DNA of 64,000 nucleotides. It comes from Candidatus Altimarinota bacterium (lineage in GTDB: Bacteria; Patescibacteriota; Gracilibacteria; BD1-5; UBA6164). The position numbers and the translations under genes are program-made. Under the pieces are notes generated by a model. That model had not been told where the DNA came from and searched no databases. It saw only the letters and a program-made list of their open reading frames with translations. The DNA lies in assembly GCA_027019405.1 (NCBI GenBank), contig JALUWO010000017.1, positions 1-64,000 on the forward strand, read 5' to 3'. Shown piece by piece: positions 12,160 to 17,424 of this stretch (position 1 is the stretch's first letter; each line of letters begins with the position of its first letter).

Positions 12160-13515
12160 ATGAACAATAATAATATAAATTTTTCTGCTATAAATTTAGG
12201 ATGTACTAAAAATCTTGTAGACTTAGAATTTTTCTTATGAGAAATTTTAAAAGAAAATTCTAATGAAACCAGTTTTAATTTTTATGAAAATCCTGAAGAT
12301 GAGGATGTAGAATTTGTAATAATAAATACTTGTGGTTTTTTATCTAGCTCTAGAGATGAAGCTGAAAAAATAATGCTAGAATATGATAAGTTGTGAAAAA
12401 AACTTATTATTATTGGTTGCTACACTCAAGTAAAAAATGATGATTTCTTAAATAGTTTAGAAAATTTATATCAAGTTTTAAGTTATAAAGATTTTGAAAA
12501 ATTGAAAGACTTAAGTCAAAAAAAAGCAATTTTTGAAGAAAAAATTAATGAATTTAAACTAAAAAAATTTGAAAAATCTATTTGAGATAAAGCATTTATT
12601 TATGATTCAAAAAAGATTAGAGCTTTTTTGAAAGCAGATTTATGATATGAGTATTTAAAAATAGCAGAATGATGTAATAATTCTTGTTCTTTTTGTATTA
12701 TTCCAGATATTAGATGAAAACAAAAATCTAGATCTATAGAAGATATTTTAAAAGAAGTAGAAATAATGGTAAAATCTTGAATCAAGGAAATAGAAATTAT
12801 CTCTCAAGACACAACCAGATACTGAATTGATTTATATAAAACTCCACAATTACTAAAATTACTTGAAGAAATTGATAAAATTCCTTGAGATTTTGTATAT
12901 AGACTTTTTTATATGTATCCTGATATCTTAAGTTTAAATCATCTAGAAAGACTTTCAAAACTTAAAAAATTATTGCCATATTTTGATTTTCCTTTTCAAC
13001 ATATTTCTCCAAAAATATTAAAAAATATGGGAAGATTTTATGATGAAAATCATATTTATAAACTTTTAGATTATATAAAACAAAATTTTAAAAATCCATT
13101 TTTTCATACAAATTTTATAGTTGGTTTTCCATGAGAAACAGAAGATGATTTTGAACAATTATTAAATTTTGCTAAAAAATATGAATTTGATTCAGTTTCA
13201 GTTTTTGGTTATCATGATGAACCATTGGCTAAAAGTTCAAAACTAGAAAATAAAGTTTCTCAAGATATTATAAAATCTAGATTAGAAAAATTAAAAAAAG
13301 TTCTAAATAAAATTTATACTAAAAAAGATAAAGTAAGAAAATGAACTAAACAAATCTGATTTATTGAAAAAATAAATGAAAAAAAATGAATTTGTAAAGT
13401 AAGACCATATATTAAAGCTCCAGATATTGATGAGTTAGATGAAGTAAAATTTGAGAATTTAGTTTGAGTGGAATATATAAATATTTGAGATAAAGTAGAA
13501 TATATAAAAAAATAA
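12160..13515 (+). CDS. rimO: Ribosomal protein S12 methylthiotransferase RimO
   Basis: A radical-SAM enzyme that adds a methylthio group to an Asp of ribosomal protein S12. The 451-residue protein has the three cluster-binding Cys of the N-terminal UPF0004 domain (NLGCTKN, NTCGF, GCYTQ), the radical-SAM CNNSCSFC motif near residue 175 and a C-terminal TRAM-like domain. The LFYMYP segment and FDFPFQHISPKILKNMGR are typical of RimO rather than MiaB. miaB is separate at 47.4 kb. It is cotranscribed with dnaB. Confidence 0.93.
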
Positions 13516-13525
13516 TATCAAAAAA

Positions 13526-13553
13526 GTTGACATTATTTTTTTATTGTATATAA
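13526..13553 (+). promoter_or_regulatory. Promoter of the possible acquired gene pair
   Basis: A perfect -35 TTGACA and a -10 TATAAG separated by 16 nt, about 50 nt upstream of the lipoprotein start. Together with the ribosome binding site it gives this gene pair its own expression signals. Confidence 0.6.
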
Positions 13554-13595
13554 GTATAAAGTCCTAGTGACAGATCTGTTCATCAAATCTTAGAG

Positions 13596-13602
13596 AAGGA
13601 GG
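13596..13602 (+). promoter_or_regulatory. Strong Shine-Dalgarno sequence (AAGGAGG)
   Basis: A consensus ribosome binding site, 9 nt before the ATG at 13612 and 3 nt before the ATG at 13606, which favours 13612 as the start. No such sequence precedes the native genes I inspected. Confidence 0.7.
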
Positions 13603-13611
13603 TATATGATT

Positions 13612-14067
13612 ATGTATATTAGATTGATGATTATCATGATTTCTAGTATTTTTTTAACAGCATGTGCAACTAAAAGTACTAATCTTGATAATACAGGTTC
13701 TAATACAGTTGATTATAGTTATTCTAAAGACAATATTGTTATAATCAAAAAGAAAACTAAATCTACTGTAAAAAATAATAGTCCTGATTTTAAAAAATCA
13801 GTAATACTCAAGCAAAAACTTGCTAAATGTGGAATAAAATATGTACCATGGGCTGATAGAGTCAAAAATGATTTAATTTTGATGCCAAAAATAGTAAAAG
13901 TTTGTAAAAAAACTAAACTAAATCTAAATGGTTATATTCTGCATTCTAGAAGAAAAAAGCTTAAAAAAGGATTTGTTTTAAATGATAAGCATTTATTTAT
14001 TCCATATTTTTGGACTGAAAAACAAATTGATGCAGCATTAAAGCATATCTTAGTAAAACAAAAATAA
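13612..14067 (+). CDS. Putative lipoprotein, probably horizontally acquired
   Basis: A 151-residue protein (153 if the ATG at 13606 is used). The N-terminus is hydrophobic with a lipobox FLTAC at about residues 14-18, so it is probably a lipid-anchored surface or periplasmic protein. The rest is basic, with a Lys-rich segment and VPWADRV and FWTEKQID motifs; I do not recognise a family. It contains no TGA codon; Gly is GGN and Trp is TGG. It has a consensus ribosome binding site, unlike its neighbours. It is followed 75 nt later by a second gene with the same traits. Inferred origin: a bacterium or phage using the standard code. Confidence 0.8.
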   Translation: MYIRLMIIMISSIFLTACATKSTNLDNTGSNTVDYSYSKDNIVIIKKKTKSTVKNNSPDFKKSVILKQKLAKCGIKYVPWADRVKNDLILMPKIVKVCKKTKLNLNGYILHSRRKKLKKGFVLNDKHLFIPYFWTEKQIDAALKHILVKQK

Positions 14068-14142
14068 AGTCTAACTAGTTTTTTCTAGTTAAATATAATA
14101 ATAGTTTATAACTATTAAAGACAAACTTATAAGGAGTATGTC

Positions 14143-15282
14143 ATGAAAAAAGGTATTTTAATTTTAACTGGTTTAGCAACTTTAAGTATTTCTGCTTTTG
14201 CAGCTAATGATACAAATTGTAGTACACCTCTTTTAAAAAGAGATTTCAATGTCACTGTTCAAAAAGAGTATCAAGGTGTATCTGCACAAGAACTTTTTGA
14301 TCAATCTGAACATGTAAAACAGGTTAAACCTGTGTTAATCAAAGAAATCAAAAAGTATACAAAGATGCTTAAGGCTTCTGATGAAGCATACAGTGGTGTA
14401 ACAACAGTTGATCGTATAATCAATGAAGTATGTGAGCTAAAAACTCCACTTTGGGAAGCCATGTCAGCAAATCAAAAAACTCTCATGTTGGGGATTGATG
14501 GAACACCAAATCCATATATGAGAAAGTCTGCACATAATGCTGATGTAAAAGCTTTAAAAGAAAAGTTAAGTGCAACCAAAAAAGCACTTGCAAAAGCCAA
14601 AGCTGAAATCACAGTTGCTTATAAAACAGCTGACCAAAGAGTTATTGATGAAGCAAACAGAAAAATCTCAGCTTTGAAACTTAGACATGCTGCAGATGTT
14701 GCAAAACTAAACAAAGAGCTTGAACAACAAGCAAATACTTTAAATAACCTCACAAAATCTCCTCATGCAATTGGTGTTTATAACACTGCAAAATTCCATG
14801 GTTTCAAAACAATTGACTTTGGAAATGGAGATGTTGCTATCTGTTCTACAGGTGTAAAACTACTTACAGCAGAAAAAATAAATTTAGAGGCTGTATGTAT
14901 TGCTGATGCAGGTCATTATAAAGGTCATGATACAGTAAGAATATATGAAGGTTACTCCACTGATGATACAAATGATATTGATTTTGTAAGACTACCTTAT
15001 GTGATCAAAACATCAAATGTTGATACCAGATTGAGATATTACAATGCTCCAGCTTCTGTGAGAAAAGGCCTTAGAAATGGTCCAGATTATCAATCTGCAA
15101 TTCTATACAGTGGAGGAAGAGTGATTACAAATGATCCACAATCATACTATCACTCTCCAGTTGTGCACCATAAAGCAAAAACAAAAAAACCACTAAAAGT
15201 ACAAATTATCAACACTGACAAAGATCCAGTTGTTGTAAAAACTGTAAAAGATGAAGAGAATTCATCTCACTGGTGGGAATAA
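14143..15282 (+). CDS. Putative secreted coiled-coil protein, probably horizontally acquired
   Basis: The 379-residue product has a clear Sec signal peptide (MKKGILILTGLATLSISAFA, cleavage after AFA), four or more Cys, and an alanine/lysine coiled coil at about residues 125-205. The C-terminal part is globular with several His and ends HWWE. It has no TGA codon, uses GGT/GGA for Gly, contains the only CGT Arg codon in the window (14412-14414), is visibly richer in G+C than its neighbours, and has a good ribosome binding site AAGGAG before the ATG. Function unknown. Style and codon use suggest a Campylobacterota-like or phage donor, but this is a guess. Confidence 0.85.
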   Translation: MKKGILILTGLATLSISAFAANDTNCSTPLLKRDFNVTVQKEYQGVSAQELFDQSEHVKQVKPVLIKEIKKYTKMLKASDEAYSGVTTVDRIINEVCELKTPLWEAMSANQKTLMLGIDGTPNPYMRKSAHNADVKALKEKLSATKKALAKAKAEITVAYKTADQRVIDEANRKISALKLRHAADVAKLNKELEQQANTLNNLTKSPHAIGVYNTAKFHGFKTIDFGNGDVAICSTGVKLLTAEKINLEAVCIADAGHYKGHDTVRIYEGYSTDDTNDIDFVRLPYVIKTSNVDTRLRYYNAPASVRKGLRNGPDYQSAILYSGGRVITNDPQSYYHSPVVHHKAKTKKPLKVQIINTDKDPVVVKTVKDEENSSHWWE

Positions 15283-15334
15283 AATAGTTTTTCAAAATTA
15301 AAAGTTTTACTTTTTGATTTTGATTCAAATCATT

Positions 15335-15366
15335 AAAGCAAGTCTAGAAATAGACTTGCTTTTTTA
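15335..15366 (+). terminator. Terminator after the acquired gene pair
   Basis: Stem AAAGCAAGTCTA / TAGACTTGCTTT with a GAAA loop and a T-run. Confidence 0.85.
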
Positions 15367-15392: not shown

Positions 15393-15422
15393 TTGACAAA
15401 TAAAATAAATATATGTTACAAT
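15393..15422 (+). promoter_or_regulatory. Promoter of the peptidoglycan-binding gene
   Basis: TTGACA and TACAAT separated by 18 nt, about 70 nt upstream of the ATG at 15494. Confidence 0.5.
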
Positions 15423-15493: not shown

Positions 15494-16174
15494 ATGTTTA
15501 GTATAATTAAAAACTATAAAAATTTATTCCTAAGTTTTACAAAAAATAATTTTGCATGATGAGTAGAAAAAGGAGGAAATAATCAGGAAGAAGTAAAAGA
15601 TACTAATAATAATTGAACTAATATTGATGAATTAGTATCTAAAATGCTTTCTGATAATAGAATTGATTGAAAAGATAAAGATTATATAAAACAATTACAA
15701 GAACAATTAGAAAGTGATAAAAATGATATATATAAACAAACAAAAGAAAAAACAAAAATAATAATGAAAGATATATATAATGATTTATTAGATAAAGGTT
15801 ATACTATTAAAAACCCTTCTGATAGGGAAACACTTAAATGATTAATGAAAATTAGCTGAACAAACTTACCAAAAGAAGTTAATATAAACTCTTTAACTTC
15901 AATATATAAATCTTGAGAAAATATATATTTAACTTGAAGAAAAACTTGAGTAAATTGAGATGAAATTATTTGAAAAATAGATAAAAATTGAAAATTTACT
16001 AATGATATATCAAATTATGAAGAATTAAGTAATTTAAATTCATCATATAATGATAATGAAATTGAAGCTTATCAAAGAGTAGCTGCTATTTCTTCTGATA
16101 TAGATAATGATAATAAAGCTGAAGCTGCCAAAAAAGAAGCTGAACAAAAGCTGAGAAGATACAAGCTGCAATAA
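15494..16174 (+). CDS. Frameshifted surface protein, N-terminal part
   Basis: This 226-residue frame is rich in Asn, Lys and Asp, contains many TGA-Gly codons and has no obvious signal peptide. It ends at TAA 16172-16174 just after an alanine/glutamate-rich helix (EAEQKLRRYKLQ). The next frame begins with a perfect continuation of that helix if one A is added in the CAAAAG run at about 16145-16150. The two parts therefore look like one gene of about 640 codons broken by a single-base deletion, a sequencing error, or slippage. Confidence 0.6.
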
Positions 16175-17424
16175 ATTGGTATAAATGAAAACCTAAAGAA
16201 GCAATAAAAAAAATACAAGAAAAATTAAATATTACTCAAGATTGAATAGTTTGACCTATTACTGTAAAAACTATTGCAAAATTTCAAAATAAACACAAGC
16301 TAGAAGCAGATTGAAAAGCATGAAAAAATACACTTAAAGCTTTATGATTAGATACAAAAATTTATAATAAAAAAGAAAAAATCAATAAATCTTCTCAAAA
16401 AGAAACTACAAAAAAACAACAAGAACAAACTTCAATAAAAGATAAACTAGATTCAAAAGTAAAACCTATTGAATATTGAATTGATAAAGATGATGTAATT
16501 AATGCTGCTAAAACATTTTTAAAAGAAAATAATAACAATTCAATAAATACAGAAGCTCCTATTTGAAGTTATACTTATAATTGAGAAACTCATAATATAG
16601 TATTAAAATGAACTCCTTGAAATTATAAAGTAGAATTAGATTGAACATGAGTAATTGATGATATAGATCAAAAAGTAGTAGGAGATACTGTAAAAGACAT
16701 AAATAAAACAGTAAATGATTTAATTAAAAAATATCAAAAAAACCTTGAAATTAAAGAAAAAGAAACTTTTCCTAAAAAGTTATGAGAATATAAAAATTAT
16801 GAATGAAAAAAACAAAATATAATTCTAGAAGAGAATAGATCTCCTTGAATCAATTGAGAAGAAGAAAAAATAACATATATTTTAGAATTTGATAATTCAA
16901 CTCCAACTTTTCATAATGATATAAAAAAAGAATATGATCATATTCCAACAGCAGATGAAGTAGAAAAAGATATAAAAACATTACAACAAAAAGTTGATGA
17001 TTATAATTTAGATGTAGATACTGATGAACAATGGGAAGAATCTGAAAAAAAAGATGAATTAGAAGAACAAAAAGAACAAAAAGAAGACAAAGAGAAAACT
17101 AAAAAAGTAAAAGAAATTTTAGAAAAATCTTGAATCATATGAGATACTACAATTAAAATAGACTCATGAGATTATAAATGAGAAAAATTTAAATTGAATT
17201 TTGATATAGATTGAGATAAATTAAAACTTGATTCAAAATGGAATCAACCTTGAACAGATAAAGAAATACAAATTGATAAGAATCAAGTAATTTGAAAAAA
17301 ACCTGATGAAGTTATGACTTATATAAATGAATTAAAAAATAAATTAATATCAGAATATCAAAAACAAGTAGCAAAGGAGAAAAAAAATAATTATGATCCT
17401 ACAAAAAGTAAAAATGAAAGATAA
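16144..17424 (+). CDS. Frameshifted surface protein, C-terminal part with peptidoglycan-binding domain
   Basis: Read in the -1 frame relative to the preceding part. It opens with AEKIQAAINWYKGKPKEAI, then a recognisable PG_binding_1 domain (about 60 residues; IQEKLNITQDGIVGPITVKT, FQNKHKLEADGKAGKNTLKA). Several related beta-rich units follow, each with a lysine/acid stretch, plus a Glu/Lys-rich linker near 17020-17110. There is no good start codon of its own near the join. The domain suggests attachment to the cell wall. A terminator follows the stop. Confidence 0.65.

What the first reader, a model, noticed from the sequence alone, without database searches (positions are those of the whole stretch)
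13526..15366. Two exported-protein genes with foreign translation signals
Both genes lack TGA in about 530 codons, while neighbours of similar size carry roughly 20-40 each. Both have strong Shine-Dalgarno sequences (AAGGAGG, AAGGAG), which native genes lack. The second is visibly richer in G+C and contains the only CGT codon. A perfect TTGACA promoter and a terminator frame the pair. They encode a lipoprotein and a secreted coiled-coil protein. Inference: recent transfer, perhaps from a prey/host bacterium or phage, into a cell that can still read them because GGN and TGG keep their meaning. A gene from a standard-code donor may enter this code, but not the reverse.
Basis: partly seen in the sequence, partly recalled or inferred. 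Interest (0 to 1): 0.72.

Follow-up and report, generated by a model that had tools for sequence, protein, structure and literature searches.

The report
Imported standard-code gene pair in Gracilibacterium
A bacterium that reads the stop signal TGA as an amino acid carries a pair of genes still written in everyone else's genetic code, taken up recently from another bacterium, and this turns out to be one case of a steady one-way inflow that the different code does not block.

Summary
ORF1 (lipoprotein) and ORF2 (exported coiled-coil protein) have 0 TGA among 22 glycine codons, where native genes use TGA for about 76%. Both have Shine-Dalgarno (SD) sites, present at 6 of 624 native genes. The pair has a TTGACA element, a terminator and foreign codon usage. 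Transfer is well supported. The only relative found, in another genus of the same family (68%/53% identity), is also TGA-free and SD-led. Native orthologs of the two genomes are saturated at synonymous sites, so a vertically inherited copy should be full of TGA; the cassette therefore arrived at least twice. Both copies lie on the same strand about 215 bp upstream of diverged homologs of one native gene, which is unexplained. The pair belongs to a class: in 915 kb of this genome SD occurs at 9/12 TGA-free genes versus 6/675 others. In a one-contig relative, SD-led genes with only one or two TGAs have the first TGA in the last 20% of the ORF in 7/7 cases (4/33 without SD), which reads as donor TGA stops now read as glycine. 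The donor is not identified; Campylobacterota are hinted for a sister gene. No reads were available; the second genome argues against a chimera.

The parts
13504..13544 (+). inverted repeat at the left junction; overlaps the end of the RimO-like gene and the cassette -35 region
   Evidence: arms 13504-13521 and 13527-13544, 94% complementary
13527..13554 (+). sigma-70-like promoter: TTGACA, 16 nt, TATAAG
   Evidence: same TTGACA-16-TATAA(C) arrangement in the L009 copy
13570..13579 (+). ACAGATCTGT palindrome in the 5' leader, conserved in the relative; possible operator
   Evidence: GACAGATCTGTT identical in both cassettes; function inferred
13596..13602 (+). Shine-Dalgarno AAGGAGG of ORF1
13606..14067 (+). 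ORF1: lipoprotein of 153 aa (151 aa from the better-spaced ATG at 13612); no TGA
   Evidence: no Pfam, PHROG or NCBIfam family
14131..14136 (+). Shine-Dalgarno AAGGAG of ORF2
14143..15282 (+). ORF2: exported protein of 379 aa, N-terminal signal peptide, central coiled coil (helices about 124-204); no TGA
   Evidence: low-confidence model; no family
15335..15362 (+). intrinsic terminator of the pair
   Evidence: -16 kcal/mol, z -5.7
15393..15422 (+). promoter of the native downstream gene (TTGACA-18-TACAAT); equivalent motif in a relative without the cassette
15494..17424 (+). native TGA-rich neighbour (MFSIIKNYK..., PG_binding_1 domain), two frames that overlap at 16117-16174; homolog lies directly downstream of the cassette in the other genus
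   Evidence: 29% identity, E 5e-14

Best explanation
A two-gene transcription unit (promoter, SD-led lipoprotein gene, SD-led exported coiled-coil gene, terminator) was taken up recently from an AT-rich, standard-code, probably Gram-negative donor. It can be used at once, because every codon in it keeps its meaning in the TGA=Gly cell. Related copies arrived separately in at least two genera of the family. The proteins are most likely made and exported by the Gracilibacterium itself as accessory surface proteins for contact with other cells. Shown: standard-code signature, foreign codons, SD, terminator, separate arrival in two genera, membership in a genome-wide class of imported genes. Inferred: uptake through natural competence and type IV pili from partner cells, use at the cell surface, donor identity.
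For: TGA 0/22 here and 0/27 in the other genus. SD at all four cassette genes against 6/624 native. Foreign usage in nearly all codon families, e.g. ATA 17% vs 51%, ATC 28% vs 4%, TTA 36% vs 68%. Native orthologs of the two genomes are saturated at synonymous sites (excess codon identity -0.02 to 0.17), yet no cassette Gly pair includes TGA although 7 of 19 differ. Only 2 of 353 class genomes carry ORF2. The same big-gene/PilD locus exists without a cassette in G021. Class evidence: TGA-free genes and SD co-occur (p 1e-14 in G000, 4e-13 in one-contig G017). Stop scars: first TGA in the last 20% of 7/7 SD-led low-TGA genes vs 4/33 without SD, p 1.8e-5. A TGA-free sister lipoprotein with a cytochrome c domain has its best matches in Sulfuricurvum and Sulfurovum. 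DprA lies in the window and prepilin peptidase in the genome.
Against: No donor homolog was found in phages, plasmids, IMG/VR scans or the one genome-contig scan; that scan needs exact 8-residue matches, so its sensitivity is limited. Landing upstream of the same native gene family in two genera is not predicted by random insertion. ORF1 codon usage is only weakly foreign. No reads could be inspected.
Confidence: 0.85

Rival explanations
1. The cassette is a remnant (moron) of a code-11-compatible phage that infects Gracilibacteria and standard-code bacteria.
For: Such phages are reported, with TGA-free genes and backup stops (PMC10746230). Own promoter and terminator are moron-like. Short lipoproteins can be exclusion proteins (weak Cor-like match, E 0.05).
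Against: No match in 50,697 phage records or in IMG/VR scans. No phage genes among the neighbours. Gracilibacteria prophages in that paper are TGA-dense.
Confidence: 0.08
2. Assembly chimera: a fragment of another bacterium was joined into the contig.
For: The bin holds standard-code contigs, some resembling Campylobacterota plasmids.
Against: An independent MAG of another genus has the same pair beside a homologous TGA-rich gene. TGA-free SD genes are interleaved with native genes elsewhere, and occur in a one-contig relative.
Confidence: 0.03
3. The pair is kept in the standard code by selection because it is expressed in the standard-code host or prey after DNA delivery.
For: The pair has its own promoter, SD, signal peptides and terminator. 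C269 alternates TGA-free secreted hydrolase genes of near-native codon usage with native TGA-rich genes.
Against: The window cassette is foreign in nearly all codon families, so no TGA-specific selection is needed. The same class contains DapD, nitronate-monooxygenase-like and phosphatidyltransferase genes useful to the importer. No DNA delivery route is known.
Confidence: 0.04

Closest known systems
Recent horizontal gene transfer detected by unameliorated composition
   Same: foreign codon usage, patchy distribution, donor-type translation signals
   Different: the recipient uses another genetic code, so absence of TGA and stop scars give an independent date stamp
Code-11-compatible phages of Gracilibacteria and Absconditabacteria (Liu et al. 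2023, PMC10746230)
   Same: genes without in-frame TGA that are readable in both codes; TGA stops backed up by nearby TAA/TAG
   Different: chromosomal accessory genes without phage neighbours; retained SD; the donor stop is now translated as glycine
ATP-citrate lyase of a BD1-5 gracilibacterium, proposed as laterally acquired (Sieber et al. 2019, PMC6851277)
   Same: import of genes by Gracilibacteria
   Different: that inference rests on similarity to archaeal proteins; code-based evidence was not used in the passage read

Membership tests
Recently imported standard-code gene | no codon with changed meaning | tested here: met
   0/22 and 0/27 TGA
Recently imported standard-code gene | foreign synonymous usage outside Gly | tested here: met
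   ORF2 -0.070 vs native mean 0.123, below the native minimum of -0.061; ORF1 0.035, between the 1% and 5% points of native genes
Recently imported standard-code gene | arrival after the divergence of the carriers | tested here: met
   native orthologs saturated, cassette TGA-free in both
Recently imported standard-code gene | identified donor homolog | tested here: inconclusive
   none found, but the searches reach only close relatives or limited collections
Recently imported standard-code gene | related genome with the locus but without the insert | tested here: met
   G021 locus for the G125 copy; not located for the window copy
Phage moron or prophage remnant | phage genes nearby or relatives in phages | tested here: not met
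Transposon or insertion element cargo | transposase or integrase, terminal inverted repeats, target duplication | tested here: not met
   neighbours are RimO-like, DnaB, PG-binding protein and ValS; no flanking repeats shared by both copies

The most novel reading that the evidence does not exclude
Some TGA-free, SD-led exported-protein genes in these bacteria are kept in the standard code because they act in a standard-code partner cell, while adjacent native partner genes that use TGA for glycine can only be read by the Gracilibacterium. The code would then separate effector from protector.
Probability: 0.04. Interest if true: 0.95.

Novelty: new variant of a known kind. Interest (0 to 1): 0.6.

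Why it matters
Whether a changed genetic code isolates a lineage is an open question. Here the answer can be read from sequence: standard-code genes enter freely and leave a code-specific mark (no TGA, SD, a TGA stop turned into glycine), so the inflow and its age can be counted. The direction is asymmetric, because native genes would be truncated in a standard-code cell. The mark also gives a way to find partners of uncultured Gracilibacteria by tracing donors of the newest imports.

Tried and rejected
Searches for a donor in phages, plasmids and IMG/VR gave nothing. The leader pattern in IMG/VR gave mostly hits inside coding DNA. The centre of the genome search could not be set to Campylobacterota. 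16S 3' ends for an anti-SD test were not found; hits to the pattern matched no rRNA family. AlphaFold models were too poor for fold comparison. Vertical descent of the cassette with TGA avoidance was rejected by synonymous saturation of native orthologs and foreign non-Gly codons. High expression as the cause of TGA avoidance (seen in r-proteins and EF-Tu, which prefer GGT) was rejected for the pair: SD is absent from those genes. A weak hit in G030 was treated as coiled-coil chance similarity.

Full report
WHAT IS THERE. The window is contig C17 of a 2.7 Mb, 504-contig bin. Table 25 (TGA=Gly) gives long ORFs throughout. Between a RimO-like gene (ends 13515) and a large PG-binding-domain gene (starts 15494) lie ORF1 (lipoprotein) and ORF2 (signal peptide, coiled coil). 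Neither has a TGA; both have an SD site; TTGACA-16-TATAAG precedes them and a strong terminator follows. No Pfam, PHROG, NCBIfam or PDB relative was found.

HOW UNUSUAL. In 915 kb of native contigs of this genome, 687 ORFs had at least 6 Gly codons. Only 12 lack TGA, and 9 of those have an SD, against 6 of 624 TGA-rich genes and 0 of 51 intermediate ones (Fisher p 1e-14). The intermediate genes include ribosomal proteins and EF-Tu, which prefer GGT and lack SD.

THE RELATIVE. One scan of 84,980 species genomes found one relative, in a Gracilibacteria MAG of another genus of the same family (G125). A profile search of 353 class genomes found only these two plus a weak coiled-coil hit. There the same two genes (68% and 53% identity) are also TGA-free and SD-led, with the same promoter spacing, a conserved ACAGATCTGT leader element and a terminator. 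Both cassettes end 211 and 218 bp before diverged homologs of one native gene (29% identity, E 5e-14), although the other flanks differ. In G021 the homologous locus lacks the cassette.

TIMING. Orthologs of the two genomes (PilD, EngB, p180, DUF407, p272) show almost no synonymous memory. A gene inherited since their split would be mostly TGA at Gly. The cassettes have 0/49 TGA, although 7 of the 19 Gly positions they share differ in codon, and they use foreign codons elsewhere too. So they arrived separately, recently, from related donors. A nitronate-monooxygenase-like gene shows the same pattern in three genera with very different G+C, and DapD in two genera.

STOP SCARS. In the one-contig genome G017 (800 kb read) 35 of 605 genes lack TGA and 16 of these have an SD. 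Genes with an SD and only one or two TGA have the first TGA in the last 20% of the frame in 7/7 cases, against 4/33 without SD (p 1.8e-5). I read these as donor TGA stops that now encode glycine, with a short tail to the next TAA or TAG.

DONOR AND MECHANISM. The donor of the pair is not identified. A TGA-free lipoprotein with a cytochrome c domain in the same genome has its best plasmid-collection matches in Sulfuricurvum and Sulfurovum, and some standard-code contigs in the bin resemble Campylobacterota plasmids (TraT nearest to Campylobacter coli). DprA in the window and prepilin peptidase in the genome fit natural competence; published proteomics also discusses DNA uptake by Gracilibacteria pili (PMC11452946). 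Use of the proteins at the Gracilibacterium's own surface is inference.

OPEN POINTS. Why both cassettes sit upstream of the same native gene is unexplained: shared insertion preference and functional coupling both fit. Reads, donor and expression are untested.

Noticed in passing
L224:1-4060 (G000:C269:1-4060): Three TGA-free genes (Amidase_6, C39-like peptidase, a third short ORF) alternate with native TGA-rich genes for small membrane proteins or lipoproteins; each TGA-free gene is followed by a hairpin. Codon usage apart from Gly is native-like.
   Followed up: partly
L224:1-203 and 1640-1870; G000:C144:61410, C144:63249, C309:40602: A leader with SD and signal-peptide start occurs about five times in G000; the copy at L224:1626 has a run of ten G between TTGACA and TATACT, as in phase-variable promoters.
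   Followed up: partly
window 15494-17424: The native downstream gene is split over two frames that overlap at 16117-16174: assembly indel or real frameshift.
   Followed up: no
G000 contigs C10, C30, C33, C47, C50, C58, C83: Standard-code contigs co-binned with the Gracilibacterium, several plasmid-like; the bin is about twice the usual genome size of the family.
   Followed up: partly
L170:1486-2568 (G019), L094:2255-3322 (G000), L171 (G125): Nitronate-monooxygenase-like gene, TGA-free in three genera with GC 0.38, 0.31 and 0.30: repeated import of the same function.
   Followed up: yes
L101, L205, L206 (G000): Highly expressed native genes (EF-Tu, ribosomal proteins) avoid TGA in favour of GGT: translational selection within the recoded glycine set.
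   Followed up: partly
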